Assembly (NCBI GenBank): GCA_902784165.1
Contig: CACZTL010000035.1
Coordinates: forward strand, 1 to 33,431
DNA: 33,431 nucleotides
Origin: an uncultured Lachnospiraceae bacterium
GTDB lineage: Bacteria; Bacillota; Clostridia; Lachnospirales; Lachnospiraceae
Direction of reading: 5' to 3'
How positions within the stretch are numbered: position 1 is the first letter of the stretch; every line of letters begins with the position of its first letter. A program made the position numbers and the translations under genes. A model generated the notes under the pieces. The model was not told where the DNA came from. It did no database searches and worked only from the letters and a program-made list of their open reading frames with translations. Below are positions 6,151 through 26,936 of the stretch, in pieces.

Positions 6151-6172
6151 AAAAAAGGGCGTTACCGCCCTT
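6151..6172 (-). terminator. Terminator overlapping the stop codon of the DUF2828 gene
   Basis: On the minus strand AAGGGCG and CGCCCTT form a stem with a four-base loop, followed by six Ts. The stop codon (6162-6164) lies across the loop, so the last codons form part of the hairpin. Confidence 0.85.
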
Positions 6173-7706
6173 CCCACGCTTTCGCACATTTATCATATTT
6201 TTTCAGAGTCTTATCCATAAACTCCACCGCATCAACACTTCCGTGCTCAAGTATGGCTTTATATATCGCGTCAGTATATCCGGAAACAAACTGCACGCCG
6301 TCTATTTCATCAGTCGGGAACGAAAGATTAAGAGCGTTGACGTTCCAATAAGTCATAGTCGGGAAAGGTATGCCTGCGTCGGCAAATTTTTTCTTTGCCT
6401 TATCAAATGTTGACCGCTGCCTCTTTCGCTTATCCTTTACGAAACGGGGGTTGAAGCCGAAGTACATAAACTCACAATCCGCACCTATGTCAAACTGCAT
6501 ATCCGAAATAACCACGACATTGGTTATATAATCCTTCGGAGCGCAGTGTTTAGACGTTTCAAGGATGAGATCGTAGGTCGCCTCTATATTAGTATTAGTG
6601 CACTCAGCCTCATTTTCACAAAGCCTCCTTTTTTCTGCCAGACCTGCACATCCCGACAGATCCACGAGCCTGGGCTCAGATGAAAAAGTAATAAACCTAT
6701 CCTTAAACTCTCCCGTGAGCTTTCCGGCAGCAAGGATAGTAAGTGATGTCGCTATGTCGAGAGGATCTCCCCACATGCTCCCCGAGCCGTCCCTGACGAT
6801 GATTATTCTCTTATCCGTCTCCGGCACTCTTCTTTCTATCTCATCCCACTGTGCCTGCGATATGACACGCTCTGTGAGGGCTCTTTTGTACACCTGAACA
6901 GGACTTAATGTCGTTACTTTTATGTCGCTTTTTCCGGCCGCAAGCCACTCTTTATAAAGATTAAAGGAAAAACCGTCATTGCGCTCAAATGCATTTTGCG
7001 TATGCTTCGAATGATACGAGCCGAACCCTGAGTGCTTATGCATTGCCTGAGACGGTATTGCCGGGTAATTTAACCCTATTTCCTTGTTTGTAAGAGCCGT
7101 CTCCACAAGGTTAAGTTTACTGCGAAGCCTTGATAGAACACGTCGGTACTCATTTTCACTCATACCCAGCTCTTTTGCTATGATCCGCGCAAGCTCACGC
7201 TTATGCTTTGCCGTAGCATTCGGCTTGGGAAGCCATTTGGCAAGGAGGGATATCGACTCACCTTCCTTGAGCCTCTTAAGATCATCATCAATACGGGCCT
7301 TGATAAAAGCGCACACTAACCTTTTCGTAGCAATATTATCAACAAGCCCTAAAAGATCATCGCCCCTTCCGTACTCGAGAATGAATGGGAGTATTCCCTT
7401 TATAGCGGCAGGATCCGCCTGCGCCGCATGTTCCAAGCATACCCTGAAAAGCTCACGCTCACCCTTTCCCCCGCGGCAGTCACGCAAATAAAACATATTT
7501 TTGATCGCAAGCGCGGCATTTTCAGCAAAAGCCTTGCCGAAAAGATCGCGCATGCTGTTAGTTTTGAAGCGCATAGCGCCTCCGAGACCGAAAAGCTTGA
7601 GATTGTGCTTTACGTCGCCGGCCTTAAGTATCTGACGGTACGCTATGTCACCGTTCTCGGTAAATGTAGTGTTTTCTGCCTTTTCAAGTTCAGTAAAAAA
7701 TCCCAT
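6162..7706 (-). CDS. DUF2828-family protein with a von Willebrand A (vWA) domain
   Basis: The 514-residue product has an alpha-helical N-terminal half beginning MGFFTELEKAEN, with FYLRDCRGGKGERELFR near residue 75. Its C-terminal half is vWA-like, with the metal-binding motif DGSGSMWG followed by downstream Ser/Thr/Asp positions. This layout is that of the DUF2828 family, whose helical repeats and vWA domain resemble Ro60/TROVE RNA-binding proteins. A role with RNA is inference from that resemblance. The start is placed at 7706, because AAGGAGG lies seven bases upstream; a longer reading to 7757 has no such site. It is a single-gene unit, since a terminator overlaps its end. One copy of the three-copy intergenic element lies upstream. 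Confidence 0.82.
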   Translation of the reverse strand: MGFFTELEKAENTTFTENGDIAYRQILKAGDVKHNLKLFGLGGAMRFKTNSMRDLFGKAFAENAALAIKNMFYLRDCRGGKGERELFRVCLEHAAQADPAAIKGILPFILEYGRGDDLLGLVDNIATKRLVCAFIKARIDDDLKRLKEGESISLLAKWLPKPNATAKHKRELARIIAKELGMSENEYRRVLSRLRSKLNLVETALTNKEIGLNYPAIPSQAMHKHSGFGSYHSKHTQNAFERNDGFSFNLYKEWLAAGKSDIKVTTLSPVQVYKRALTERVISQAQWDEIERRVPETDKRIIIVRDGSGSMWGDPLDIATSLTILAAGKLTGEFKDRFITFSSEPRLVDLSGCAGLAEKRRLCENEAECTNTNIEATYDLILETSKHCAPKDYITNVVVISDMQFDIGADCEFMYFGFNPRFVKDKRKRQRSTFDKAKKKFADAGIPFPTMTYWNVNALNLSFPTDEIDGVQFVSGYTDAIYKAILEHGSVDAVEFMDKTLKKYDKCAKAWEGR

Positions 7707-7782
7707 AACGTACCTCCTTATGTAAATGCAATTGCGTTTCTTTTTGTTAAAGTACACTAAATCTGCTGAAGTGTACCCGCTC

Positions 7783-7972
7783 TCTGCTCTGTATACGTAT
7801 TGATCACTACTGTTTTTTTTGCCTTTGAAGTAATTGCTGTTAGAGCAGAAAAATATTAAATTGTAATAGGGAACGGTTGTTTAGATACATTTGCAGACGC
7901 GCTTACTTATCTGTGCGTCTGTTATTATTATATACATTCTTGCAAATAATTCTATCAACCGGTGGTTGAAAT
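7783..7972 (+). ncRNA. Copy A of a three-copy intergenic element, candidate structured RNA
   Basis: This copy shares with copies B and C the blocks TCTGCTC (7783-7789), AATTGCTGTTAGAGCAGA (ending 7849), TTGTAAT, and TCTATCAACCGGTGGTTGAA at the right end. TCTGCTC can pair with GAGCAGA about 55 bases later. The interior between the shared blocks differs from B and C. It carries its own 9-bp hairpin, CAGACGCGC with GTGCGTCTG (7894-7921), which includes a G-T pair that is stable only if the plus strand is the RNA. The upstream third seen in B and C is missing. The rest of this gene-free stretch (7707-8168) shows only the flanking promoter and terminator regions. The strand and function are inference. 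Confidence 0.5.
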
Positions 7973-8113
7973 ATGTCAAAGATGATGGTTTTGCTGAGGC
8001 ATATGGCAGGTGCGTCAGCAGAATCCTCACCTTTAACATACTTTGGGCTGAAGGCTAAACAATAATTGTATATTAATAACTTCCCTTTTCAAAAAACCGA
8101 ACCTTTGTAAAAT

Positions 8114-8143
8114 AAAAAAACAGACAGAGAACTTCCCTGTCTG
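8114..8143 (-). terminator. Terminator after the SDR gene
   Basis: On the minus strand CAGACAGG and the complementary CTGTCTG flank a short loop, followed by seven Ts. It lies 26 bases after the SDR stop codon. A near-identical hairpin ends the HipA-like gene at 24355-24381, so this terminator may belong to the same repeat family. Confidence 0.8.
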
Positions 8144-8168
8144 AATCTTTAATAAATGATATAAGCTG

Positions 8169-8909
8169 TTACGCCTCAAATCCTCCGTCTACCTTGATGA
8201 CCTGTCCGTCTATAAATGATGAATCATCACTTGCGAGGAACAATGCAACATTAGCGATATCCTCGGGCTGTCCCGCGCGCTTCATAGGGCAGGCATCGAT
8301 CATGAACTGAAGCGCGTCAAGACCTCCGATAGAGTCTACCATGGCTGTATGGATAAGTCCGGGGGAGATAGCATTTACCCTGATCTCCGGTCCGAGCTCC
8401 CACGCCATAGACTTGGAAAGTCCTGCCATCGCGTGTTTTGATGATACATATGCACCGAAGCCGTGATGTGCAGCATGAGCCGCTACAGACGCAGTATTTA
8501 CGATTACACCCTTACCCTTGCCTTTCATAATAGGCGCCACGAGCTGAGTCAGGTAAAGTGCTGCCGTTACATTTACGCGGAAAACACGATCCCACTCCTC
8601 GCGCGAAATCTCAGCAAGGGGTGACATGGAAAGCATACCTGCATTATTCACAAGGATATCAACCGTACCGTAGGCCTCCAGTGTTTTGTCAAGAAGGATC
8701 TTGCAGTCGTCTGTGTTTGATGTGTCTACGGTAACGTAAATCGCTTCACCTCCCGCTGCCTTTATATCGTCCACAACTTCCTTCGCGCGCTCTTCGTTAC
8801 GTCCGGTAACGACAACCTTTGCGCCTTCCTCGGCAAATTTCTTCGCTATGGCTCTGCCCATGCCCGAGGTGGAGCCTGTAATTATTGCAACTCTGTCCTG
8901 TAATTTCAT
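8169..8909 (-). CDS. Short-chain dehydrogenase/reductase (SDR), FabG-like
   Basis: The 246-residue product is a classical SDR that oxidises or reduces an alcohol/ketone substrate with NAD(P)H in the cytosol. It has the nucleotide motif TGSTSGMG (11-18), NNAG (88-91), Asn113, and the catalytic Ser141, Tyr154 and Lys158 (YVSSK), with the usual Pro-Gly at 183-184. The C terminus, FIDGQVIKVDGGFEA, is typical. Length and motifs match the FabG or glucose 1-dehydrogenase type, but the substrate cannot be read from sequence. The start is set by AGGAG before the ATG. It stands alone between a terminator and a 41-bp perfect hairpin in its upstream region. Confidence 0.93.
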   Translation of the reverse strand: MKLQDRVAIITGSTSGMGRAIAKKFAEEGAKVVVTGRNEERAKEVVDDIKAAGGEAIYVTVDTSNTDDCKILLDKTLEAYGTVDILVNNAGMLSMSPLAEISREEWDRVFRVNVTAALYLTQLVAPIMKGKGKGVIVNTASVAAHAAHHGFGAYVSSKHAMAGLSKSMAWELGPEIRVNAISPGLIHTAMVDSIGGLDALQFMIDACPMKRAGQPEDIANVALFLASDDSSFIDGQVIKVDGGFEA

Positions 8910-8943
8910 GATATTATCTCCTTTATTTTTCTAAATGTTAGCC

Positions 8944-9029
8944 AAGTGTGTCAGATGGGGACAGTCCCTTTGTGTCAAAATGGGTTTGCCCATTTTGACA
9001 CAAAGGGACTGTCCCCATCTGACACACTT
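8944..9029. repeat. 86-base perfect inverted repeat made of paired REP-like units
   Basis: A 41-bp arm and its exact complement flank the four-base loop TTTG. Each arm contains the GTGTCA...GGGGACAGTCCC...TGTGTCA unit found singly elsewhere in this window. No T-run follows, so it is not a terminator. Such GTGTCA/TGACAC repeats are common between genes in Clostridia and resemble REP/BIME elements moved by Y1 (IS200-like) transposases; no such transposase is in this window. It lies in the region upstream of the SDR gene. Confidence 0.85.
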
Positions 9030-9115
9030 TCCATATCCGGAAACTCCGCGCGGTTAAGATTGTACAACATTTTATACAAAAAAAATAAGTATCACTTTTC
9101 TGATAAAAAAAGGTG

Positions 9116-9439
9116 TCAGATACATACCGGCTTTTTCAGACGCGCGTATGTCTGCCTCTGACTTGTAAAAACACAAAGCTTCCCGCGGCTGACAAAAAAA
9201 GAAGCATCCCCGCTTCTAACGAGGATGCCGTCTATCGGTGTCTCCAGCACAACTGAAAGAATCACCATATTTTCTATGGACGGGAGACTTTGTCCGTTTA
9301 TCCACTTATACACGGCCTGGGGCGCCTCAAAGCCGCAGGCTGTCTGGATGTCACGGACATTCAGACATTTGTCATCCATCAATTTTTTGATACGCTTGCC
9401 GGTTTCTTCTTGTAACACAGTAATATAAACAGGTCTCAT
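9116..9439 (-). CDS. XRE-type helix-turn-helix DNA-binding protein
   Basis: This small protein of 107 residues has a Cro/C1-type helix-turn-helix at about residues 12-65. ETGKRIKKLMDDKCLNVRDIQ leads in, the recognition region is GFEAPQAVYKWINGQSLPS, and IENMVILSVVLETPIDGIL closes the domain. The tail has no recognised domain and ends in a short basic stretch. AAGGAGG lies six bases before the ATG. A promoter is seen about 175 bases upstream, giving a long leader. The target is unknown; it may control itself or the adjacent Fic gene. The last codons run up to a GTGTCA-like sequence. Confidence 0.83.
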   Translation of the reverse strand: MRPVYITVLQEETGKRIKKLMDDKCLNVRDIQTACGFEAPQAVYKWINGQSLPSIENMVILSVVLETPIDGILVRSGDASFFVSRGKLCVFTSQRQTYARLKKPVCI

Positions 9440-9612
9440 AGTAAGCCTCCTTTTAAAAGTCCGACGCTTATAAAGCGCATAAAAAGATACAGGATAAATT
9501 TCCTTTTTTTAAAATCTAAGGGGTAACTTTTAAAAAATATACAACTGAGTTAATTCTAACGTAGTCTTTAAGAAAAAGACCGGAAACCGTCCCACACCAA
9601 CGGAGTCGTTTT

Positions 9613-9640
9613 ATTGTATCAGATATTTTATATAAGTCAA
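9613..9640 (-). promoter_or_regulatory. Promoter of the XRE gene
   Basis: The minus strand reads TTGACT (9635-9640), 16 bases, then TACAAT (9613-9618). The transcript would have a leader of about 165 bases. Copy B of the three-copy element starts only about 13 bases upstream of the -35. Confidence 0.62.
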
Positions 9641-9652
9641 TACTAAAATTAA

Positions 9653-9926
9653 GAAAAAAGCACATTCCGATGTAAACTCTTAGAATTGAAATACCTTGAC
9701 AAGCTTCTCTTCTTATCTGTTACTCTGCTCGTTAATCGTATGTTGGGTTAAGTTATTTAAGCCCGCCCACCGTTTTGTTTTTGTTTTCGTTTTTGTTGAT
9801 TTAAATTTTTGATTAATTGCTGTTAGAGCAGAAAATAATTATGTTTTGTAATTTGTTTTATTTATGTATAGATGATAACACCACAGGTTTTTGATGTCTA
9901 TCAACCGGTGGTTGAATCATTTTTTC
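9653..9926 (+). ncRNA. Copy B of the three-copy intergenic element, candidate structured RNA
   Basis: This and copy C are the full-length copies. Blocks in order are AAAAAGCACAT(T/C)CCGAT (9655 on), AATACCTTGACA (9690-9701), a TTACTCTGCTC block, GTTAATC...TATGTTGG.TTAAG, ATTGCTGTTAGAGCAGA (9816-9832), TTTTGTAATTTGTTTTA, and TCTATCAACCGGTGGTTGAATCAT at the end. TCTGCTC (9724-9730) can pair with GAGCAGA (9826-9832). The last block forms TCAACC-loop-GGTTGA followed by TTTTTT, like a plus-strand terminator. No open reading frame of note lies inside. It lies between the XRE and Fic genes. Confidence 0.58.
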
Positions 9927-9936
9927 AACTCAAAGC

Positions 9937-9966
9937 GTGTCAAACGTGGACAGTCCCTTTGTGTCA
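9937..9966. repeat. REP-like unit
   Basis: A single GTGTCAAACGTGGACAGTCC-type unit ends in TTTGTGTCA. It lies 15 bases downstream of the Fic stop codon and just after copy B of the three-copy element. Confidence 0.7.
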
Positions 9967-9981
9967 GTCCTGCCATTAAGC

Positions 9982-10971
9982 TTATTTTTTTACATAACGC
10001 TGATTTCTGCTGCGCGGCTTATCCGGAATCGTCATATGAACTAATCCCAATTCAATCGCCGGATGCAGATAGTTGTTCCGAAAACTGTCCTTCGTTTTGA
10101 TCCCAACCTTTTTCATCAGATAATTTGATGTATAAGGTACATCATATTCCATGATTTCAAGCAGCCTGCCTACATACTCCGAAATCTGACCTTCCTTTGC
10201 AGAAGCCTGCTTTAGAATATCCTCAAAGGCATTGTCGATCTGATGCAGCATAAACTCAATAAACGCATCTGACCTTCCGGCATTGTTGCAATCTGCGATA
10301 GCCTTGTAATAACCGGTCTGATCTTTTTCTATCTTGCTCTCGATCGGCAGATACCTGAATATTTCGCGCCATTTTGCCAGAAGCGCCGTCTGCCAGAGTC
10401 TTGCCATACGACCGTTACCGTCAGAAAACGGATGGATGAAAACAAATTCATAATGAAAGACAGAGGACAGGATCAAAAGATTCAATTCCTTTTCTTTCTT
10501 CATCCATAAAAACAGATCCTTCATCAGAGAAGGCACTTTTTGTGGCAGCGGGGCAACAAATATAACCTTATCCCCGGCAAATACACCTTCATCACCGCTC
10601 CGAAAGACACCTGATTCTTCCACCAGCCCCTTAGTCATAATTCCATGGATTCTCTTTAATTCAGAAATAGAATACGGATCGATGTCCGGCAGTTCCTCAT
10701 AAGCTGCATAAGCATTTTTAACTTCAAGAATCTCGTTTCCCGGTCCAAGCACTTCATGCCCTGCAATGACATCCCTGACTTCCTTCAAAGAAAGTGAATT
10801 TGCTTCAATTCTCAAAGAAGAACGAATCGACCGGATCAGATTGCTCCTGCGCAGATGCGGCTTGGCATCCAGATTGTTATAAAGACTAATCTGCCCCAGC
10901 TTCTCTGAAATAGACGCTGTCAATGCCAGCATCGCCGGTGAAATATTAAACGGAGGAGTATAACTCGCCAT
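9982..10971 (-). CDS. Fic/DOC-family AMP-transferase (class II)
   Basis: Fic proteins usually attach AMP to a hydroxyl of a target protein, and some remove it. This 329-residue protein has the full catalytic motif HPFSDGNGRMAR (H180-R191), with the catalytic His and the phosphate-binding GNGR. An N-terminal helix carries the inhibitory motif as SLRIEAN (S52-E56), a variant of the usual (S/T)xxxE(G/N) with Ala in the sixth place. That order makes it a self-inhibited class II Fic protein. A winged-helix-like C terminus (from about residue 265) is common in this class. The start is placed at 10971 because GAGGT lies seven bases before that ATG; the ATG at 11007 has no binding site. Its target is unknown. 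No toxin partner is adjacent. Confidence 0.9.
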   Translation of the reverse strand: MASYTPPFNISPAMLALTASISEKLGQISLYNNLDAKPHLRRSNLIRSIRSSLRIEANSLSLKEVRDVIAGHEVLGPGNEILEVKNAYAAYEELPDIDPYSISELKRIHGIMTKGLVEESGVFRSGDEGVFAGDKVIFVAPLPQKVPSLMKDLFLWMKKEKELNLLILSSVFHYEFVFIHPFSDGNGRMARLWQTALLAKWREIFRYLPIESKIEKDQTGYYKAIADCNNAGRSDAFIEFMLHQIDNAFEDILKQASAKEGQISEYVGRLLEIMEYDVPYTSNYLMKKVGIKTKDSFRNNYLHPAIELGLVHMTIPDKPRSRNQRYVKK

Positions 10972-11406
10972 AAAACATACCTCATAAAATCTCCATTTAC
11001 TTGCCATTTATCTTACCATATTTCATGAATCCGCTCAAGCAAAATTAAACAGGCTTGCCGCTTTTGTAATAATGTTTAGGTCACATCCACCATCACGGAC
11101 TTGAAAGAGGCAGATACAACAATACGCCTATTTTGCGGTCAGTTTATCCGCCGAAAGATTATGCCACGCCTGTACTGTAATGTGAATACTCACGAAAAGA
11201 TTTTATATTCCACTTAGGAATCCAACTGATTTATAAAAAATATTTCTGAAAAGGTTTTACTTTTATATGAATCTATTTACTTCAAAAAATAACCCTGGCA
11301 AATATAAAAAGCATTGTTATACGTCTAAAAAAATGATAGATTTAACTAAAAGTCAGTTTATTTCTCATGTGCTGTTTTTAATGAACCGTAAACATTATAA
11401 GAAAAT

Positions 11407-11429
11407 ATGATAAAACTATCATTTTTTTT
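11407..11429 (+). terminator. Orphan plus-strand terminator upstream of the kinase gene
   Basis: ATGATA and TATCAT pair around a four-base loop and run into eight Ts. It would end plus-strand transcripts arising in 10972-11400, where only a 25-codon reading frame (11333-11410) is seen. It insulates the kinase promoter from upstream transcription. Confidence 0.55.
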
Positions 11430-11491
11430 GATTTCATGTGCTTCATATGAGACAAATAATAATAAAAAAGGTAAATTCAGTGCAAGAGATT

Positions 11492-11500
11492 TGGTATGAT
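11492..11500 (+). promoter_or_regulatory. Extended -10 promoter candidate of the kinase gene
   Basis: TGGTATGAT fits the extended -10 pattern TGn plus TATRAT and is placed to start RNA near 11507, about 27 bases before the preferred start codon at 11534. No good -35 is seen. Confidence 0.45.
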
Positions 11501-11533
11501 AATCTGACAATAATAATCGGCAAGGAATGTTTA

Positions 11534-13771
11534 ATGGTAAAAGAAAACGAAAACAAAAATCTTATATTAAACGAAAGCAAAAAGTACTATTCTGACAAAG
11601 AAAATGTCCTTAAAAAATGGCTGACAAACTACGGACGTATCAGCGAAGATAATGATTATTATACTAATAAAAAATGTATTTCCGAGATCTTCAATATGAT
11701 AGATATTATTGCATACAATAAAATTGATGATTTCCGGAAGCAAGCTTCTCGTTTACCTGACGAAATAATAAATGATAAAGTTTATGAAGTGTATGAGTTC
11801 AATGACAGAAAAACAAAATTTTGGCCGCCCACTACATTTGCATCAAGAATCACAGCTTTGAAAAGAATCGGATATATAATTCCTAATGAACTTAACAATA
11901 GTATACGCTCTTTAAGAAATGAAACTATGCATGGGAATGAAACCATTCTCATGGAGCATATGGAACTCGATTATGCGTATACAAAAAAGATAATGCTTTC
12001 ATTTGCTGATTGTCTTATAGCTCTTGATATGCTAAATACAGATAACAGGGTACCCACATTTGAACTGCTTCGCGTGAACGAAGGAAGCACTCTAAGGAAC
12101 TCTGAATATAGGATAGACTCACTTCTCGGAGAAGGCGGCTCTGCGCGCGTTTATAAAAGCACTCACAAAAGACTTGGCAACTCTCTTGCTATCAAGGAAT
12201 TAAAACCTAATATGTATTCGAAAGAGCTGCTTCGAAATGAAAGTAAAATCTTAACACGTTTAAAGCACCATAATATTCCTCAGATTTTTGATGTTTTTTC
12301 AGAAAATGGCACTTATTATATTGCGATGGAGTACATCAATGGAATAACCTTAGATAAATATTTATCGACAAACAAGCTTGCAAATAATGAAAAAAAACAA
12401 ATTGCCGTTAAATTATGCGATATAATGAGATATCTGCACGGCCAAAAGGAAACTATTCTTTATTGTGACCTTAAGCCTCGAAATATCTTGGTAAATACGG
12501 ATAACGAACCATTTCTTATAGATTTTGGTGTTTCTGAAATATATGGTAGCAAACAAAACAACTCATTTATCACCAAGGGATATACTGCGCCTGAAAAATA
12601 CTCACAAAAAGAAGATAATAGATCGGACATTTATTCTTATGGAATGATTCTTAAGGATTTATTCGGTTCCGAATCCGATTTCTCCCATATAGCAGAAAAA
12701 TGTATCTGCTATAACCCTGACGATCGGTACCAGAGTTTTGAAGATATATACGAAGCACTGACCGATACAACGCCCGATCGGTGTGAAACATCCGAATCTG
12801 CTTTTGATAGCCGTAAAAAATCAGGTTCAATAAAATGGCTTATACCTATTGCCGTTGCAGGTGTCGGAATTGGAATTATTATCTCTGTTTCTTTAGGAAT
12901 GACAACTAAATCCCACAAGGATTCCGAAGACCCAATCACAACTTTATCTGCCACATACAGTGACACCGAACGAGGCTTTCAGGCTCTGTCTGAATTTCAA
13001 AAGATTTTTGAGAAAGCCTTTGTATTTGCAAAAAATAATGATAAGGAATCCTATTTAAGTTTATTTAAGATTGATGAAGACCCGATAAACAAACAAAGCA
13101 TCCTCAATCGTATTGAAACAGAGTATAATACTCTATTCAATCATATAAAAAACAACAATGTGACTATCAATGATTACGAGTATTACTACATAACTGATTC
13201 AGGTGAATACTTTGGTGTTGGTGTACTGGATAAATCTGTATATACTTCTGACAACCCGGATAAATACTCCTATAATCTTTATACTCCGATATCAGAAAAC
13301 AACGGAAAATGGATGTTTGATTATACACTTACTGCACACAATGCCTTGGGTGCCAAGACTGAAAGTCTTTGGCCTGCTGAAATACTTCCGTTCTTTAATG
13401 AGGTAGGTCTTCCCGATAATAATTTTTGGGTAGATATCGATGACTACTCATGGATGAGACCATCCGTGGTAATTGATGATGTGCTTTCGGCTAAAATTTG
13501 TTTTTTATTCCAGGATAAAAGCGGTAATATACTGGCCGGAGTTAACATAAAAAATGGTAAGGACTCTGAACAAATTATTTCAAAGTTACATTTACATGCT
13601 GATGATAAAGTATTCGGTAAAATGTTTGACATTGCTGTTGATGGAGATATCATTCCGTCTAAACAATCGAAGACCCTTATTGTTCACATATCTTCAGATT
13701 TAGTGTCTGACAAAGCAAAAGCCCAGACTTGGTCTGAGCCCTGTAATTTAAAAGCGGATATCACTGTTTAG
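11534..13771 (+). CDS. Transmembrane Ser/Thr protein kinase with an extracellular sensor-like domain
   Basis: The 745-residue product has four parts. Residues 1-180 are helical and resemble DUF4145-type domains (FWPPTTFASRI, then SLRNETMHGNE at 126-136). Residues 193-410 are a Hanks-type kinase: glycine loop GEGGSARVYK (199-208), Lys221, Glu236, catalytic loop YCDLKPRN (D312, K314, N317), DFG (330-332) and APE (352-354). A single membrane helix lies at 433-455. Residues 460-745 are outside the cell, with no PASTA repeats. The catalytic loop has Tyr in place of the usual His. The ectodomain segment 547-615 resembles the small secreted protein at 15189-15638. The start at 11534 follows AAGGAA; a GTG at 11438 lacks a site. 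Its last 11 bases overlap the convergent surface-protein gene. Confidence 0.86.
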   Translation: MVKENENKNLILNESKKYYSDKENVLKKWLTNYGRISEDNDYYTNKKCISEIFNMIDIIAYNKIDDFRKQASRLPDEIINDKVYEVYEFNDRKTKFWPPTTFASRITALKRIGYIIPNELNNSIRSLRNETMHGNETILMEHMELDYAYTKKIMLSFADCLIALDMLNTDNRVPTFELLRVNEGSTLRNSEYRIDSLLGEGGSARVYKSTHKRLGNSLAIKELKPNMYSKELLRNESKILTRLKHHNIPQIFDVFSENGTYYIAMEYINGITLDKYLSTNKLANNEKKQIAVKLCDIMRYLHGQKETILYCDLKPRNILVNTDNEPFLIDFGVSEIYGSKQNNSFITKGYTAPEKYSQKEDNRSDIYSYGMILKDLFGSESDFSHIAEKCICYNPDDRYQSFEDIYEALTDTTPDRCETSESAFDSRKKSGSIKWLIPIAVAGVGIGIIISVSLGMTTKSHKDSEDPITTLSATYSDTERGFQALSEFQKIFEKAFVFAKNNDKESYLSLFKIDEDPINKQSILNRIETEYNTLFNHIKNNNVTINDYEYYYITDSGEYFGVGVLDKSVYTSDNPDKYSYNLYTPISENNGKWMFDYTLTAHNALGAKTESLWPAEILPFFNEVGLPDNNFWVDIDDYSWMRPSVVIDDVLSAKICFLFQDKSGNILAGVNIKNGKDSEQIISKLHLHADDKVFGKMFDIAVDGDIIPSKQSKTLIVHISSDLVSDKAKAQTWSEPCNLKADITV

Positions 13772-15092
13772 TTTTTTTACGACAGTATAACATCCCGGCA
13801 GTTATGCAAAATCCTGTTGCTGCAACCAGCGAATAACTCAAAAAATCATTAATATCACCTGTAACCGGCACTTCTGAAAGCTGAGTTATACGGCTTTCTT
13901 TGTGTACCGGATTTAAAGCACTTGTTATTTGATTTGTTTCATAATATTTATCTTTAACCTCTTCTTGTATTTCCTGATTATCAGCCTTTCTTTCAGAAGT
14001 AATATTTTTCGTCTGATAACCGTGCTGACTGAAAATCATCTGTTTACCACCTGATATATTCGAAACAGCTGACTCCTGTATTTCATGTCTTATCACATCA
14101 TGTTTGGGATCATCACCTTGACCTTTACCGACTACTGTATCATTAACTTTTTTTTCATCGTCAGTTTCCTTAATCTCTTCAGCCAGTCTTTTAGAACTAT
14201 TATTATCTTCCCAGGAAGTCAACAACCCCGGATGGAGTAAATGCTTCGGTCCACCACCTTTTGCATCCTCAGGTGAATCATAAACTGTATAATTGATATT
14301 ATTATCAAATAGATTCTCTAAATAGGTAACGTGCTCAATGCCTTCATCGTCCTTATATCTGCCATAAAAAGCTCGTACCGCATATTTCCCGTTTTTAGTC
14401 TCCTCACTTACTCTGTTTATACCGGAAAGGCGTCCGTCTGCACCCTTTTCGTATTGAAGTATAAAGCCGTATCCGCCACCGTGTACGCTTGTTACTACCA
14501 AGCCTTCTTCTATGTCATTAGATATGTATGGCGGCTTTGTTTCAAAAGTTACTCCCAAATTGTCTTCCGGTGTAACCTCTTCCTTATCAAACTTATAATT
14601 ATCTAAAATAAAACTGCTTTCCGATGCTTTTACTTTTAATCCGGTTTCTCCTACAACCGGATATGATGATGAGTTTATATCTACCAGTCGTATTAAATAA
14701 TCCCCCGGCGATAATAATAACCCCAGCTTGCCTACAGATTTTTCATCATTTACAAATGAAATATTAAAATAAGAAATATCCGGATAAAAAGCTACACTAT
14801 TCCCATCTTTATATAACCAGACTTCATAATTATATTTTATTGCATCTTTACTCATAAATGTGATTTCTGCCTCTTCTCCGAAATCTAATTCTTCTTTATT
14901 GCTTATTATTTCTACCTCATACGTATCTGAATATCTCGTACCGCCATTATCTTCAGATAATAGCTGTTTATTACCTGTTTCAGACTCATCATTTGCAACT
15001 GCTAATTCTGAAAAAGATACAAATAAAGTTAAAGCTATTAAAGCGCCACCCCAAAAAAAAAGGAGGTTCTTCTTTTTTTTGCTCGTTTTCAT
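13761..15092 (-). CDS. Secreted protein with a sortase-type C-terminal anchor
   Basis: The 443-residue product has a signal peptide (MKTSKKKKN, then a hydrophobic stretch ending near residue 33). A predicted beta-rich middle (40-280) follows, then a hydrophilic Lys/Glu region. The C terminus is VPVTGD (408-413), a hydrophobic segment and CRKKTKQ. That order is a cell-wall sorting signal, with VPVTG in place of LPXTG. No catalytic motif is seen. It lies downstream of the small secreted protein gene on the same strand and converges on the kinase gene with an 11-base overlap, so the three probably form one locus. AAGGAG precedes the start. Confidence 0.72.
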   Translation of the reverse strand: MKTSKKKKNLLFFWGGALIALTLFVSFSELAVANDESETGNKQLLSEDNGGTRYSDTYEVEIISNKEELDFGEEAEITFMSKDAIKYNYEVWLYKDGNSVAFYPDISYFNISFVNDEKSVGKLGLLLSPGDYLIRLVDINSSSYPVVGETGLKVKASESSFILDNYKFDKEEVTPEDNLGVTFETKPPYISNDIEEGLVVTSVHGGGYGFILQYEKGADGRLSGINRVSEETKNGKYAVRAFYGRYKDDEGIEHVTYLENLFDNNINYTVYDSPEDAKGGGPKHLLHPGLLTSWEDNNSSKRLAEEIKETDDEKKVNDTVVGKGQGDDPKHDVIRHEIQESAVSNISGGKQMIFSQHGYQTKNITSERKADNQEIQEEVKDKYYETNQITSALNPVHKESRITQLSEVPVTGDINDFLSYSLVAATGFCITAGMLYCRKKTKQ

Positions 15093-15156
15093 CGTCTTTT
15101 ATCTCCTTAAACAATTTATTAAATACAGGCGAAACTTACGCTGACAATTACGTTAC

Positions 15157-15185
15157 ATTTTACAATATATTACTTCAAGAGGCAA
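15157..15185 (-). promoter_or_regulatory. Promoter candidate of the sortase-anchored protein gene
   Basis: The minus strand reads TTGCCT (15180-15185), 17 bases, then TAAAAT (15157-15162). The -35 lies just past the stop codon of the upstream gene. The match is moderate. Confidence 0.4.
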
Positions 15186-15188
15186 TCA

Positions 15189-15638
15189 TCAGATGAGTCT
15201 CCATGCCTCGTCAGGATAACAGTGCTTTGTAGCGGCACTTATCCTATTAGCTGCCTCGTCTGTATTGTCAATGCTCCACTCCTTTCCGTCATATGATAAG
15301 CTTAATTCCAAATTATGAGTTTTATAGTCGGTATTCGGGAATTTTCCGGCAACAATAGAGTTGATTATACCAAATGCAAAATAATTACCGTCGCCACCTA
15401 TAACAAAATAATCAGTAATGGGATAGTTATCGTAAATAGCGTCCTCCTCAGATGCCTTTGCTCCTGAATTATCAGCGAAAGTCCGGGCTGTTTCTGTTTC
15501 AGCCGTTTTTCCTTCAGTTGCAGCAGTCGTTTCTTTTACTTCCGTGCTTTGAGCTAAGAATGAGAAGCCTGTCAGGGTACTGCCGGCAGCGCACAGTGAA
15601 ACGCTAAATCCTTTAATTATTTTTTTCAGCCTTTTCAA
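15189..15638 (-). CDS. Small secreted protein resembling the ectodomain of the nearby kinase
   Basis: The 149-residue product has a signal peptide (MKRLKKIIKG plus a hydrophobic stretch to about residue 30) and a Thr/Glu/Ala-rich linker. The compact domain from about residue 75 reads DYFVIGGDGNYFAFG, then NLELSLSYDGKEWSID and PDEAW. This lines up with kinase residues 548-615 with about two one-residue gaps: shared positions include D-Y, G-x-YF, NL, GK-W, D-x-T, A-x-N and P-x-E. Homology is inferred from this pattern. The start is TTG at 15638, ten bases past the stop of a 51-codon ORF; an in-frame stop just upstream excludes a longer form. The ribosome binding site is weak. Confidence 0.65.
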   Translation of the reverse strand: MKRLKKIIKGFSVSLCAAGSTLTGFSFLAQSTEVKETTAATEGKTAETETARTFADNSGAKASEEDAIYDNYPITDYFVIGGDGNYFAFGIINSIVAGKFPNTDYKTHNLELSLSYDGKEWSIDNTDEAANRISAATKHCYPDEAWRLI

Positions 15639-15647
15639 TGGCTAAGT

Positions 15648-15803
15648 CTATTTCTTTATTTTTTTTTTTATCCCTGCGCCTGATAAGATAGAGCGTATTG
15701 TATCTATATTGCATGAATCGTTCTCATTGATGTGCAATTTTTTATAAATAGTTCTTCTTCCAATGCCTTTAAGTTGCAGAAGCGCTACGATAAGTTCAAT
15801 CAT
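15648..15803 (-). CDS. 51-residue protein with a helix-hairpin-helix-like motif
   Basis: An open frame from ATG at 15803 encodes MIELIVALLQLKGIGRRTIY followed by a Lys-rich end. The segment LLQLKGIGRRTIYKKL is typical of a helix-hairpin-helix, as at the N terminus of DprA/Smf. The frame ends ten bases before the start of the small secreted protein gene, which suggests translational coupling. GAGA lies six bases before the ATG. It could be a truncated DprA-like remnant or a true small DNA-binding protein. Confidence 0.42.
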   Translation of the reverse strand: MIELIVALLQLKGIGRRTIYKKLHINENDSCNIDTIRSILSGAGIKKKIKK

Positions 15804-15908
15804 TTTTATCTCATATTATTTTTTATGTTTAATACATAGTTCAAACATGGTACCGTTACATGACAATAAGTAAGTATTTCTTTGTCACTTATCCGTCTGC
15901 AATAAAAG

Positions 15909-16196
15909 GAAAAAGCACATCCCGATATAAACTTTTATAAGTAAAATACCTTGACATGCTTCCTGTTACTCTGCTCTCTTCGTTTTTGGTTGCTCTGTTC
16001 GTTAATCCTATGTTGGATTAAGTTTAATTAAGATGATTTACAGCTTCATAATTGCTGATGTTTAATTTTATATCTTGAATTATTGCTGTTAGAGCAGATA
16101 ATTATTTTGTTTTGTAATTTGTTTTAGTTCTGTATAAATAATACCACCGCCGGGTACAGTCGTCTATCAACCGGTGACTGAATCATGATTTTTCTT
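15909..16196 (+). ncRNA. Copy C of the three-copy intergenic element, candidate structured RNA
   Basis: It carries all blocks seen in copy B in the same order, from AAAAAGCACATCCCGAT to TCTATCAACCGGTGACTGAA. TTAATCC (16002-16008) and GGATTAA (16015-16021) form a perfect hairpin; in copy B the matching pair has a T-G wobble in its stem, which is allowed only in RNA from the plus strand. A CTCTGCTC block can pair with GAGCAGA before 16100. Its right end lies about 20 bases from the stop codon of a shortened PIN toxin gene. Confidence 0.58.
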
Positions 16197-16218: not shown

Positions 16219-16452
16219 TTATTTATCTAACCCTAAAAATTCATCCAGCATAGAAACTGAAAAAATCATATCTATTATTTTTTCCGCTTTATCCGGCCAC
16301 TTACGATAGGCGATATAAGAAAACTCATTAAATACATACTCTGACACCACAAGTGAATATCCCTTTTTAATCAGATTCAACAAAAGGCGTCTTGGTTTTC
16401 CGCCAAATACAATAGCAGAAATAATTACATTTGTATCAATCAATATTTTCAT
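16219..16452 (-). CDS. PIN-domain toxin, C-terminally truncated
   Basis: PIN toxins are metal-dependent RNases. This 77-residue product has the N-terminal half of the family: MKILIDTNVIISAIVFGG with the first acidic metal ligand (Asp6), and SEYVFNEF with the conserved Glu. Family members of this type are about 130-140 residues long. The second half, with the other acidic ligands, is absent; the frame stops after FLGLDK. It is therefore probably inactive. It overlaps the antitoxin gene by four bases (ATGA). Copy C of the three-copy element begins about 20 bases past the stop, so the loss of the 3' half may be linked to that element. Confidence 0.78.
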   Translation of the reverse strand: MKILIDTNVIISAIVFGGKPRRLLLNLIKKGYSLVVSEYVFNEFSYIAYRKWPDKAEKIIDMIFSVSMLDEFLGLDK

Positions 16453-16682
16453 GATATCACTCTCTTTTTTCTAAACTCGGACATTTCATGAAGCATTTCT
16501 TCTTCTGACTCCCACCCCTTGTCATCTGCCAAAATAGCATCGATATCTGAAAAGAGATTTTCATTCTTTTTTACTTTCTTAATGTTACCTCGAGATACAA
16601 GGAACTGTAGATAATCTAAAACCAGATTTTTATCTTCTTCCGTAAGCTTTTCATAAAGACTATTTATGTTTGCTGGAATCAT
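16449..16682 (-). CDS. Antitoxin partner of the PIN toxin
   Basis: The 77-residue acidic protein begins MIPANINSLYEKLTEEDKNL and has a helical N-terminal region (YEKLTEEDKNLVLDYLQFL) seen in antitoxins that pair with PIN toxins. A more disordered C-terminal tail follows, which would wrap the toxin. GAGGAGG precedes the ATG. Its last four bases overlap the start of the toxin gene. The role is inferred from size, order and overlap. Confidence 0.72.
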   Translation of the reverse strand: MIPANINSLYEKLTEEDKNLVLDYLQFLVSRGNIKKVKKNENLFSDIDAILADDKGWESEEEMLHEMSEFRKKRVIS

Positions 16683-16807: not shown

Positions 16808-16841
16808 GTGTGTCAGATGAGGACTGTTCCGTTTGACACAC
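16808..16841. repeat. REP-like unit abutting a regulator stop codon
   Basis: GTGTGTCAGATGAGGACTG continues to TTTGACACAC, so its ends pair as GTGTGTC...GACACAC. Its right end reaches the stop codon of the 340-residue regulator gene at 16841-16843. Confidence 0.72.
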
Positions 16842-17863
16842 TAATCCCGGTACCTCTCAAGCCTCCTTAACGCCGACTGATACATATCCTCCGCAAGGCT
16901 TAAGGGCTCCAGCGCTACCACCGAGGCTCCGTACGTACGTAGCCACTTTTTAAAGGAATTTAGGCCGCACACCTCATCTTCATAGTACGCAATCCCTTCC
17001 TCTTTAGGGTCATCGTAGAGCTTACGGTATTTCCTGCCGTTTGTTTCCGTCTTTATTTTTTCAAATATATTTTTCGTCTCTTTATATATTTTTATCTTTA
17101 CATGCACCTTCTCATCCGTGGAGGCGTCGGCTCCCCACATATAATCAAGCTTATCTATCGCACCGTCCGGCAAAGGCGACATCTGTTCGTCTTCATGAAC
17201 GTAAAGCTCACTTATACGATCCAGACGCCTAAGACTTAAGCTGCCGTCTTCCGTTACTCCTACGCAATACTTTACCCCGTTATCCAAAACTTCATATATA
17301 TACCTTGCGCAAAATCCGTTGCAAATCTCTTCACCCTCACTGCTTACATATTTAAATGATATGGGATGGTTTTGTTCTATGGCGATCTGTATGGAGCCCA
17401 GGCAACCCGGATCTTTCTGACCTGAGGCAAATACCGGATCCTTTATCCACACTGCTTCGGATATTCGGGAAATATCTGCTATCTTAGAAAAAACATTTTT
17501 TTCAAAGGGGGTTAAATTTACAAAGAAAGCCTCTCCCTCTTCCATATCCGTAAAACTACTTGCAGAAATACTTAAATTTGCTGCAAATGCTTTTTTTTCC
17601 TCACGTCGCAGAGCATTAAGCCATGCTTTCTTTCTTTCATCATTATTACCGGCCGTTTCATCAGCCCAAGTCACGGAGAGTTCATTATAAATTTTCTTAT
17701 TTTCGCACAGATAAAGAAGGTCGTTTCGCAATACATTTCGCGGTATACCTGTTAGATCACTTATCCTATCAAGACTAAACTTACCGGCTTCGTCCGAGAT
17801 ATCTGACATAAGCAGTGTCATAAGCTCTGAAATTCTTACAAATGCGTTTTTGTATTTTTCCAT
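16841..17863 (-). CDS. WYL-domain transcriptional regulator (340 residues)
   Basis: WYL proteins bind a ligand, often nucleic acid or nucleotide, and control transcription. The N-terminal 60 residues (SLDRISDLTGIPRNVLRNDL) look like a winged helix. A WYL-like core lies at about 155-235 (ISFKYVSSEGEEI..YCVGVTEDGSLSLRRLDRI) and a WCX-like C-terminal domain at 250-335 (KVHVKIKIYKETKNI..FKKWLRTYGASVVALEPLSL). It follows the 455-residue WYL regulator gene by 15 bases, so the two are cotranscribed. It resembles the 231-residue protein at 20002-20697 at both ends. The start at 17863 has AAGGAG about 12 bases upstream. Confidence 0.82.
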   Translation of the reverse strand: MEKYKNAFVRISELMTLLMSDISDEAGKFSLDRISDLTGIPRNVLRNDLLYLCENKKIYNELSVTWADETAGNNDERKKAWLNALRREEKKAFAANLSISASSFTDMEEGEAFFVNLTPFEKNVFSKIADISRISEAVWIKDPVFASGQKDPGCLGSIQIAIEQNHPISFKYVSSEGEEICNGFCARYIYEVLDNGVKYCVGVTEDGSLSLRRLDRISELYVHEDEQMSPLPDGAIDKLDYMWGADASTDEKVHVKIKIYKETKNIFEKIKTETNGRKYRKLYDDPKEEGIAYYEDEVCGLNSFKKWLRTYGASVVALEPLSLAEDMYQSALRRLERYRD

Positions 17864-17878
17864 CTTTCTCGCAGCTCC

Positions 17879-19246
17879 TTACTCTTGTGTGTCAAACGAA
17901 GACTGTTCCCCTTTGACATATTCTTCATGCAGCTCCTTATATTTTTCAAGCAGCTCCTCCGTCTTTTTTATCATATGCTCTCTTGCTCTTGCCGGCTCTA
18001 TGATTACCGCGGAAGATCCCATGCCGCGCACAAAGCGCATAAATGCATCCACGCCTATTATATCGTCTTTATATTTTATCCACCCTCCGGTGCCTTGGTT
18101 TACCGGATAACTGACCTTAGCCGTGCCGGCTCTTGCGTTCTTGAGTATATCTATCTGCCTTTTGATATACGGCATATCCTCAAACCACACCTCCACATGA
18201 GTCGGCTCTTCCGTCACCACCGACCACATTTGCCTAAAGAGCCTTTTATATTTCCGGCTTTCATAGATGTCATTTTTCGTATTTTTATCAGCCACGGCCT
18301 TTACCACGCGCTCCGGTCTGAATACGATACGGCTCCAGCCTTCTTCATTCTTCGCCTCTCCGATCAGGTAAAAACTGTTGGTCTCCACGCTAAAAACTAT
18401 CAGGGCAGTCTTGAAGCAATAGTCCTTTTCATTGTCTTTTTCCCTGTAGCGTATGTTTAGGGCAAGTTCTTTAAAGGGCAGACTTAAGATAAAATCCAGC
18501 TTATCGGTAAGCTCATCAGATATATCATTTTTTCTTCCGAAGGTTCTTATCGCGCCCGACTCCGGATCTTCCGTTTCGGGACTTACGAAGGCAATTTTTT
18601 TTCTTATTGCCTTGAGAGTCTCTTTAAGCTCCGAATCATAACCCCTGTCTGAATAATAGCCGTTAAATTCCATCAGATCATCTTTGTATATAAGACCGGG
18701 CACCGGGGCATTTTCCGAAATATGATAAAACCTTTTATTCGGAGCTTTACCGTCTGTATCCTCATCAAGATGTGACCGGCTGCGGATCTCTTCAAAGGAA
18801 TATTTAGAAATGAACCTAAGCTTTTCAAGCTTTGCCAAATGTGTCCGCAGCTTTGTATCGCTTATTTTCCCTGCCATGTCTTCATACGCAAGATGTATAT
18901 CCTCCACGGACATATATCTGTCATGTTCCTTTTCAAATATCAACAAAAGAAGCCACTGCTCGGCCGTATCCTTATTTGCCGGTTCATAATCCTCATCCGC
19001 AATTCCTGAAGCATCTATCATGGCTTCTGATTCCTTTAGAATGTAACCTCCGTTTTGGGTGGATTCTATGTTGAAGCCCTCCTTTCTCAGGCCGTTTATA
19101 TTATCGGTTAAAGTGTTTTTTTTGATCGAGCTGCCCCCTCTCTTGATTATCTCTTGTATGAGCTGCTCGCCGCGTATGCCGCCGGCGGCTCTGAGTATTT
19201 CTATGATCATCTTTTTTCTTTCTCTTACTTCTTGCCTTCCTGCCAT
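17879..19246 (-). CDS. WYL-domain transcriptional regulator (455 residues)
   Basis: This long regulator has an N-terminal helix-turn-helix (MAGRQEVRERKKMIIEIL to about residue 70) and a second winged helix (EQWLLLLIFEKEHDRYMS to about 180). A WYL-type domain spans about 255-345 and a WCX-type domain about 350-435 (FMRFVRGMGSSAVIIEPARA). The start at 19246 is chosen because AAGGAGG lies six bases upstream; a frame reaching 19318 would begin upstream of the predicted transcription start and translate a repeat. Its last eight residues, SSFDTQE plus the preceding Gln, are encoded by a REP-like unit. It leads a two-gene operon divergent from a second regulator pair. Confidence 0.82.
   Translation of the reverse strand: MAGRQEVRERKKMIIEILRAAGGIRGEQLIQEIIKRGGSSIKKNTLTDNINGLRKEGFNIESTQNGGYILKESEAMIDASGIADEDYEPANKDTAEQWLLLLIFEKEHDRYMSVEDIHLAYEDMAGKISDTKLRTHLAKLEKLRFISKYSFEEIRSRSHLDEDTDGKAPNKRFYHISENAPVPGLIYKDDLMEFNGYYSDRGYDSELKETLKAIRKKIAFVSPETEDPESGAIRTFGRKNDISDELTDKLDFILSLPFKELALNIRYREKDNEKDYCFKTALIVFSVETNSFYLIGEAKNEEGWSRIVFRPERVVKAVADKNTKNDIYESRKYKRLFRQMWSVVTEEPTHVEVWFEDMPYIKRQIDILKNARAGTAKVSYPVNQGTGGWIKYKDDIIGVDAFMRFVRGMGSSAVIIEPARAREHMIKKTEELLEKYKELHEEYVKGEQSSFDTQE
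17887..17919. repeat. REP-like unit forming the C-terminal codons of a regulator gene
   Basis: GTGTGTCAAACGAAGACTG continues to CTTTGACAT. It lies inside the 3' end of the 455-residue WYL gene, so the repeat supplies the last codons before the stop at 17879. Confidence 0.72.
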
Positions 19247-19284
19247 ATGCAGCCTCCTTAAGCAGTTGTGTAGTGGGGGAAGTG

Positions 19285-19316
19285 GTGTGTCAAGGTGGAC
19301 GGTTATACTGACACAC
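19285..19316. repeat. REP-like unit in the 5' leader of the WYL operon
   Basis: GTGTGTCA...TGACACAC ends pair around a GGTGGACGG centre. It lies between the predicted -10 (19317-19322) and the start codon at 19246, so it would form a hairpin at the very 5' end of the transcript. Confidence 0.72.
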
Positions 19317-19325
19317 ATTATACCA
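19317..19325 (-). promoter_or_regulatory. Extended -10 promoter of the minus-strand WYL operon
   Basis: The minus strand reads TGGTATAAT, a perfect -10 with TGn extension. RNA would start near 19310, which excludes the in-frame codon at 19318 as a start. Confidence 0.6.
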
Positions 19326-26890: not shown

Positions 26891-26895
26891 ACTTT

Positions 26896-26936
26896 AAAAA
26901 CCTGCCAGAGCTTATAACCTCCGGGCAGGTTTTTTT
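26896..26936. terminator. Bidirectional terminator between the convergent methyltransferase and endonuclease genes
   Basis: AAAAACCTGCC and GGGCAGGTTTTT form the stem, with T-runs on both strands. The endonuclease stop codon (26935-26937) lies in its tail. Confidence 0.88.

What the first reader, a model, noticed from the sequence alone, without database searches (positions are those of the whole stretch)
7783..16196. Three-copy intergenic element with conserved pairings: candidate new structured RNA or RNA-bearing mobile element
Copies at 7783-7972, 9653-9926 and 15909-16196 share ordered blocks, including ATTGCTGTTAGAGCAG and TCTATCAACCGGTG. All three lie in the same orientation between minus-strand genes. 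TCTGCTC in each copy can pair with GAGCAGA 55-130 bases later, and the right end is a TCAACC/GGTTGA hairpin, followed by a T-run in copy B. Copies B and C differ in the TTAATCC/GGATTAA stem by a change that stays paired (T-G) only in plus-strand RNA. Spacer lengths vary while the pairing blocks are kept. No protein is encoded. I do not recognise it as a described RNA family.
Basis: partly seen in the sequence, partly recalled or inferred. Interest (0 to 1): 0.78.

Follow-up and report, generated by a model that had tools for sequence, protein, structure and literature searches.

The report
Ro60-partner RNAs, read from opposite strand
Three repeated spacers in a bacterial genome are most likely genes for small RNAs (Y RNAs) that partner a bacterial relative of the human Ro60 protein, and relatives in phages carry parts that imitate transfer RNA, including its anticodon loop.

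Summary
On the minus strand each has a promoter with a dyad, then UCUGCUCU-A-ACAGCAA...GAGCAGA-G. Copy A leads into a minus-strand gene (6162-7706) whose AlphaFold model matches only TROVE, Rsr and Ro60 in the PDB at E<=1e-3; copies B and C end at terminator-like stems. In the genus 4 of 11 genomes have this Ro60-like gene, and the same 4 have the element.

Near distant relatives of the gene in Clostridia and phages lie single or tandem elements of the same plan with different stems: 146 of 249 ACAGC sites upstream carry a >=7 bp stem (permuted motifs about 5%; antisense 2 of 36), with covariation. A covariance model built without this genus has copy A, minus strand, as its best window hit. 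RtcB is a frequent neighbour; some interiors are permuted tRNA T/acceptor/D arms, as in known bacterial Y RNAs. So: Y RNAs of a DUF2828-type Ro60.

Less expected: short phage elements often hold anticodon stem-loop mimics (22 of 112 short elements, all in phage loci; shuffles 0.4), suggesting Ro-bound tRNA decoys or sensors. The window's copies show no tRNA-like part. Transcription and Ro binding are untested.

The parts
7783..7849 (-). Copy A core RNA: stem UCUGCUCU (7849-7842), ACAGCAA (7840-7834), stem AGAGCAGA (7790-7783); lies in the 5' leader of the Ro60-like gene
   Evidence: best window hit of a covariance model made without this genus (7781-7849, E 0.0025); 75 nt from stem end to the ATG
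7927..7969 (-). Copy A promoter region: dyad TCAACCACCGGTTGA (7969-7955), TAGA, -10 TATAAT (7932-7927)
   Evidence: not in the list of the promoter scan
9724..9832 (-). Copy B core RNA: stem UCUGCUC / GAGCAGA with UA-ACAGCAA; long interior
   Evidence: partial covariance-model hit at 9787-9827 (E 0.46)
9872..9915 (-). Copy B promoter: dyad TCAACCACCGGTTGA, -35 TAGACA, 17 nt, -10 TATCAT with TG before it
9653..9706 (-). Copy B terminator-like end (weak stem, then U-run)
   Evidence: -9.9 kcal/mol on minus, -3.2 on plus (stretch slightly longer than these coordinates); not listed by the terminator scan, whose loop limit is 8
15970..16098 (-). Copy C core RNA: stem UCUGCUCU / AGAGCAGA with A-ACAGCAA; longest interior of the three
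   Evidence: not found by the covariance model
16138..16181 (-). Copy C promoter: imperfect dyad TCAGTCACCGGTTGA, -35 TAGACG, 17 nt, -10 TATTAT with TG before it
15908..15966 (-). Copy C terminator-like end
   Evidence: -18.6 kcal/mol on minus, -6.7 on plus; not listed by the terminator scan
6162..7706 (-). Ro60-like (TROVE-like + vWA) protein, 514 aa, DUF2828/DUF7788
   Evidence: Pfam; phrog_850 'RNA-binding protein' 8.5e-88; AlphaFold pLDDT 90.5; Foldseek: TROVE 9kop, Rsr 2nvo, Ro60 9nf8
9116..9439 (-). HTH_3 protein after copy B; a homologue follows the Ro60-like gene in relative G254
16841..19318 (-). Two proteins with weak WCX (WYL-type) matches, upstream of copy C; homologues lie beside a Ro60-like gene fragment in relative G258

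Best explanation
The three copies are minus-strand genes for Y-RNA-type partners of the Ro60-like protein encoded at 6162-7706. A sigma-70-type promoter with a dyad, probably an operator, stands before each. The RNA's 7-8 bp basal stem plus the constant ACAGCAA beside it is the protein-binding handle (inferred), and the variable interior is the effector part (inferred). Copy A also lies in the 5' leader of the Ro60-like gene, which would allow feedback by the protein on its own message (inferred); B and C look like stand-alone RNAs ended by terminators. By analogy with Rsr/Y RNA, the RNA would gate or direct the Ro60-like ring towards damaged or tRNA-derived RNAs. Shown: homology, strand, covariation in relatives, link to the gene, protein fold. 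Inferred: transcription, binding, function.
For: Gene and element occur in the same 4 of 11 genus genomes; the exact GCTGTTAGAGCAGA lies upstream of the gene in all four. In 91 regions of up to 900 nt upstream of the gene, ACAGC has a >=7 bp stem at 146 of 249 sites, in 63 regions; of the other 29 arrangements of its letters, CAGCA and CACAG, which overlap it, give 107 and 21 hits and the remaining 27 give 0-7 each (74 of 1384 sites); antisense ACAGC 2 of 36. Leave-one-pair-out: pairs 2-7 are Watson-Crick in 80-95% against 31-77% expected. Covariation score 0.699, shuffled 0.233, slid at most 0.186 (elements preselected for pairing). The external model has copy A as best window hit. ACAGCAA plus stem finds A, B and C and nothing else in the window; 0 of 200 shuffles reach three. 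Protein fold: only TROVE, Rsr and Ro60 at E<=1e-3. RtcB within the fetched 1.5 kb flanks in 14 of 33 non-genus bacterial loci. T arm plus D arm, permuted, in elements of L087, L150, L203.
Against: No transcript or binding data. Window copies have no T/D arm or anticodon hairpin. Their stem (UCUGCUCU) departs from the common AAGRYRC...GYRYCUU-G. Within the genus the stem never varies, so no local covariation. Antisense cores fold more stably than sense in 7 of 8 genus members. The model finds B only partly, C not at all, and misses both L121 copies at E<=1; whole-genome E for A is only 0.12, with 150 of 761 candidates scored. 28 of 91 regions have no element by the pattern. Leave-one-out pair 1 fails (3 of 34 Watson-Crick, 27% expected), which I put down to the variable spacer. 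One interior pair of B/C favours plus. Two G258 copies lack the dyad. Profiles of the family do not reach Ro60 by sequence; profile-profile comparison gives 71.5% probability over the vWA part only; the structural matches are remote (TM 0.37-0.53, rmsd 9-12 A).
Confidence: 0.82

Rival explanations
1. The element is only a cis-acting leader: an autoregulatory protein-binding site or attenuator for the Ro60-like gene, with B and C as displaced or decoy copies rather than Y RNAs.
For: In A, G254 and G258 C49 the ribosome-binding site follows 16-64 nt after the stem. A short local hairpin UGCU/AGCA could compete with the long stem (by eye).
Against: B, C and a G258 copy end at terminator-like stems. 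Elements come in arrays of up to seven (L087) and in some phages lie downstream of the gene. Some interiors are tRNA-like.
Confidence: 0.12
2. One reading: plus-strand structured RNA ending at the TCAACC hairpin.
For: Plus-strand T-run after B; one T-G pair that holds only on plus; cores have lower folding energy on the strand antisense to the gene in 7 of 8 members.
Against: Signal in relatives is on the gene-sense strand: 146 stem hits sense, 2 antisense. The model hits only the gene-sense strand, in the window and the genus loci. The hairpin sits 20-21 nt from a -10 box on minus in five of eight members.
Confidence: 0.03
3. DNA-level element (transposon end, attC-like site or operator array) with no RNA function.
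For: Three copies around accessory genes; a DNA dyad is present.
Against: Stem arms covary at spacings of 15-161 nt. The plan recurs beside one gene family in Clostridia and phages. No extra copies found in the genome.
Confidence: 0.03

Closest known systems
Bacterial Y RNA (YrlA) with Rsr
   Same: Stem pairing the RNA's ends, variable effector domain that in some relatives is a tRNA-like T/acceptor/D module (described for YrlA in PMC8394870, passages read); Ro60 orthologue encoded nearby, often with rtcB (PMC7790460, passages read).
   Different: Partner is a DUF2828/DUF7788-type protein not matched by the TROVE Pfam model. Stem carries an adjacent constant ACAGCAA; elements occur in arrays; some phage ones hold anticodon arms. 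Window copies lack a tRNA-like part. Seven loci taken as canonical Rsr (TROVE by Pfam in the two checked) show no such element by the model. Whether published Y RNAs carry ACAGCAA I could not check.
Candidate Y RNAs near an Rsr-like protein in Listeria phage CKA15 (PMC12282133, passages read)
   Same: Three highly transcribed non-coding regions within 2 kb upstream of a protein that HHpred matched to Rsr; the authors suggest Y RNAs. In the related phage cka17 three of our elements lie just upstream of the homologous gene.
   Different: The one coordinate range given (26,236-26,727) does not coincide with those three elements, taking cka17 and CKA15 coordinates as comparable (untested).
Vertebrate Y RNA
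   Same: Works like: a Ro60-bound stem plus variable loop.
   Different: The window matches no Rfam model at the copies (I did not check which Y RNA models Rfam holds). PMC4726728 (passages) calls bacterial Y RNAs not homologous to the vertebrate clades.

Membership tests
Bacterial Y RNA | Encoded beside a Ro60 orthologue | tested here: met
   Copy A lies directly upstream of the gene; Ro60-like fold; same 4 of 11 genomes
Bacterial Y RNA | RNA ends pair in a basal stem | tested here: met
   Pairing by covariation in relatives, invariant within the genus; that the stem is at the RNA's ends is not shown, since promoters and terminators lie outside it
Bacterial Y RNA | tRNA-like domain in at least one Y RNA of the species (requirement recalled from Chen et al. 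2014, not held) | tested here: not met
   None in A, B, C; T and D arms present in relatives L087, L150, L203. Genome is 89% complete, and other copies with different stems could be missed
Bacterial Y RNA | Bound by the Ro60 protein | not testable with these tools
   -
Bacterial Y RNA | Expressed as a small RNA | not testable with these tools
   Only promoter- and terminator-like sequences
Ro60/TROVE protein | Ro60-like fold by structure search | tested here: met
   Foldseek 9kop 2.2e-7, 2nvo 2.3e-6, 9nf8 7.7e-5, the only three at E<=0.001, 531-592 alignment columns with gaps; remote: TM 0.37-0.53, rmsd 9-12 A
Ro60/TROVE protein | Pfam TROVE PF05731 match | tested here: not met
   Window protein: none at E<=10. 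DUF2828 and DUF7788 in 21 of 21 homologues, TROVE not among the 25 families shown of 30, vWA_Ro60 in 2 at best E 0.0042. phrog_850 matches both kinds: 1.7e-88 here, about 1e-50 for L141 and L146, which have Pfam TROVE
Rfam families | Gathering-threshold match at the element | tested here: not met
   Window none; relatives give only tRNA and glmS
Mobile element | Dispersed copies | tested here: not met
   Three copies found, all within 8.4 kb

The most novel reading that the evidence does not exclude
DUF2828-type Ro60 systems display a library of tRNA-part mimics: tandem Y RNAs share one Ro-binding handle, but each presents a different piece of tRNA. Some are anticodon arms (loops CUGUUAA, CUUUUAA, CUGCUAA, CUGCAAA, CUUCUAA), others permuted elbows. 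They would act as decoys or sensors for anticodon-cutting nucleases, in bacteria often next to the RtcB ligase; phages would carry them as counter-defence. Basis: 22 of 112 short elements have such an arm of >=5 bp against a shuffle mean of 0.4, maximum 3; all 22 are in phage loci (two bacterial loci, L101 and L133, have 4-bp arms). Seven-base loops show the largest excess (34 against 6.5 in shuffles; lengths 6, 8 and 9 also exceed: 14, 11, 16 against 7.0, 5.5, 5.2), and 20 of the 34 are YU...AA against 0 or 1 at other lengths.
Probability: 0.35. Interest if true: 0.88.

Novelty: new variant of a known kind. Interest (0 to 1): 0.66.

Why it matters
It ties an RNA element without an Rfam match to a widespread protein family often annotated only as hypothetical (relatives in 679 of 50,697 phage records). 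It supplies a simple signature (stem, ACAGCAA, stem, G) by which such RNAs can be found. The anticodon-arm mimics give a testable answer to an open question: what bacterial and phage Ro60/Y RNA particles act on.

Tried and rejected
Plus-strand RNA (see rivals). Transposon, integron attC and REP readings: no dispersed copies found; I did not search for transposases. Two-block pattern scans gave nothing in viral contigs and five hits in 84,980 genomes, scattered over unrelated groups, which I did not follow and take as chance (near relatives of the window may be left out there). 40 viral contigs hold the bare 16-mer, not followed. The first BLAST survey gave short matches in 32 of 250 family genomes; a check of the 30 loci listed by then for the two blocks found them only in the window's own, plus one inexact block in L027, so I take the rest as noise. 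Plasmid and phage nucleotide searches: no match. Close-relative protein scan of viral contigs: none, before the alignment query succeeded. Sequence search of the PDB: no Ro60; only the fold showed it. Dyad regulon: only A and B match with at most one mismatch in the genome (C differs more). Listeria transcript map: could not be tied to our elements. ARAGORN sees no tRNA in the window.

Rows dropped: of the bacterial loci L104, L105 (fragments), L139 (contig end), L100 and L106 (no usable start) and L141-L147 (no tblastn match) are out, leaving 37; of 80 phage loci 54 were used (those of alignment A2: 79 had a usable frame, 56 were left at 80% identity, 54 given to A2). 45 of 65 distinct short elements (of 133 found), picked by hand, went into alignment A4. 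These had been chosen for at least 7 pairs, so leans towards the structure; searches are the fairer tests. Antisense is a poor control for anticodon loops, because their reverse complement also fits the loose pattern (28% against 39%); searches used single-letter shuffles. My first scan lost copy A to a G-U filter, mended.
Full report
Check of the observation. The three copies exist at the stated places, in one orientation, between minus-strand open frames. B and C are 72% identical over 294 bases; A shares the two blocks. No other copy was found in the 1.6 Mb genome, 89% complete, by BLAST with C or by the 14-mer GCTGTTAGAGCAGA with at most one mismatch. There is no Rfam match at gathering score in the window, and none at the copies at E<=5.

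The link to a gene. The gene that copy A faces, 6162-7706 on minus, carries DUF7788 (3e-27) and DUF2828 (3e-13) and matches the phage family phrog_850 'RNA-binding protein' at 8.5e-88. Among 11 genomes of the genus, 4 have the gene, and the exact 14-mer occurs in the same 4 and no other (one-mismatch hits in G043, G254 and G258 look like coding sequence by eye). It lies upstream of the gene in all four. G258 has three copies, two of them on a contig that also carries a second, partial gene.

The strand. Read on minus, each of the eight genus members has TCTGCTCTAACAGC and, later, GAGCAGAG. In six of eight the 'right-end hairpin' is a dyad upstream of a -10 box (arms paired 6, 6, 4, 4, 6, 3 of 6); in A, B, C, G256 and G254 the gap from TTGATA to the box is 20 or 21 nt. 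The script chose a box at 24 for G258 C49, where TATCAT stands at 21 by eye. The two G258 C45 copies lack the dyad. An independent promoter scan, which finds no more sites than shuffles do overall (33 against 29.7), lists the B and C boxes with TG before the -10. In A, G254 and G258 C49 the stem is followed 29-75 nt later by the ATG of the gene; in G256, 187 nt later. In B, C and G258 C45a the left end folds better on minus than on plus and ends in a U-run.

The wider family. Upstream of distant homologues in Clostridia the same plan recurs with different stems, often in tandem. It also flanks the gene in 54 of 80 phage loci, and occurs near the gene in named Listeria, Mycobacterium, Escherichia and Campylobacter phages (one record each). 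Controls: in 91 upstream regions (37 bacterial, 54 phage), 146 of 249 ACAGC sites have a stem of >=7 bp, in 63 regions. CAGCA and CACAG overlap the motif (107 and 21 hits); the other 27 arrangements of the letters give 0-7 hits each, 74 of 1384 sites in all; antisense ACAGC gives 2 of 36. When one pair is left out of the search, it is still Watson-Crick in 80-95% of cases for pairs 2-7 (31-77% expected). Pair 1 is not: 3 of 34. On an alignment of 45 elements all 9 pairs show changes on both sides, with covariation score 0.699 against 0.233 shuffled and at most 0.186 slid, but those elements had been selected for pairing. A covariance model from them, with no member of this genus, has copy A on minus as its best hit in the window (E 0.0025) and a partial hit at the ACAGCAA of B (E 0.46); C is missed, its interior being far longer than the model's. 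It finds the G254, G258 C49 and G256 members (E 0.0005, 0.009, 0.44), misses both G258 C45 copies, and finds nothing in 7 loci taken as canonical Rsr. In the whole genome A is the only hit at E<=1 (0.12), with 150 of 761 candidates scored.

The protein. AlphaFold with 54 phage relatives gives pLDDT 90.5 and pTM 0.90. Foldseek's only PDB matches at E<=0.001 are a TROVE domain (9kop), Deinococcus Rsr (2nvo) and human Ro60 (9nf8), with TM-scores of 0.37-0.53 and rmsd of 9-12 A, that is, remote. Sequence profiles do not reach Ro60, and profile-profile comparison with canonical TROVE proteins is weak. phrog_850 matches both kinds. Some mycobacteriophage records call it 'Ro-like RNA binding protein'. 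RtcB stands within the fetched 1.5 kb flanks in 14 of 33 non-genus bacterial loci; the window's genome has RtcB on another contig. Homologues of the window's HTH_3 and WCX-type proteins stand beside the gene in G254 and beside a gene fragment in G258.

What is inside. Of 190 non-redundant elements, 73 have an interior over 48 nt; 18 of these 73 hold a T-loop hairpin of >=5 bp (shuffle mean 0.01). Three elements show a T arm and then a D arm, with, by eye, an acceptor stem closed by a loop between them, that is, a tRNA opened at the anticodon. This agrees with the published YrlA description: end stem plus D, T and acceptor arms (PMC8394870, passages). In the 112 short elements (26-48 nt) there are 22 with an anticodon-type hairpin, shuffle mean 0.4, all in phage loci. 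Seven-base loops are 34 against 6.5 in shuffles; lengths 6, 8 and 9 are also raised (14, 11, 16 against 7.0, 5.5, 5.2), lengths 4, 5 and 10 little or not. But 20 of the 34 seven-base loops are YU...AA, against 0 or 1 at any other length from 4 to 10. By a slightly different pattern 21 arms, in 20 of 81 loci with elements, were placed: 19 have the loop 15-19 nt after ACAGCA; anticodons GUU 7, UUU 5, GCU 3, GCA 2, UCU 2, UCC 1, CAA 1. I saw no description of anticodon arms in Y RNAs in the listings and passages seen (searches; passages); the key papers are not held. The window copies have neither kind.

How it most likely works. The stem plus ACAGCAA is the handle for the Ro60-like ring; the interior is the effector (inferred from covariation, constancy and the Ro60/Y RNA precedent in PMC4726728 and PMC7790460, passages read). 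The leader position of copy A suggests that the protein can bind its own message. Near RtcB and with tRNA-part mimics in relatives, a role in tRNA damage (sensing, decoy or clearance) is the likeliest theme; PMC7790460 raises the YrlA tRNA-like domain as a possible competitive inhibitor of an anticodon nuclease. This last step is a hypothesis.

Against. No expression or binding evidence; window copies lack the tRNA-like part and the common AAG...CUU-G stem; the stem is invariant in the genus; antisense folding energies are lower in 7 of 8 cores; 28 of 91 regions have no element by the pattern.

Verdict. A real, conserved, minus-strand RNA element: most likely Y RNAs of a DUF2828-type Ro60. New variant of a known kind, with an open and more surprising possibility in the anticodon mimics.

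Noticed in passing
window 8943-9030 and 9937-9966: Near-perfect inverted repeat built on GTGTCA..GGGGACAGTCCC..TGTGTCA, with a partial second copy beside copy B; REP-like by eye; draws sub-threshold miRNA-family hits in Rfam.
   Followed up: no
window 25802-27525: DNA methylase (N6_N4_Mtase) next to an MjaI-type restriction endonuclease.
   Followed up: no
window 16219-16682: Small gene pair that looks like a PIN-type toxin and its partner, by eye only.
   Followed up: no
L121 8646 and 12819 (G258): Two element copies about 4.2 kb apart share an identical core and terminator side but diverge on the promoter side of the core.
   Followed up: no
L230, L231, L228: In one coliphage, one Campylobacter phage and one Listeria phage the Ro60-like gene and its elements sit beside or among tRNA genes.
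   Followed up: partly
L228 4480-4971: In Listeria phage cka17 this stretch would correspond to the very highly transcribed non-coding region reported for CKA15 (26,236-26,727), if coordinates are comparable; it lies upstream of our three elements and holds none by the pattern.
   Followed up: no
L089 3084-3250: glmS ribozyme.
   Followed up: no
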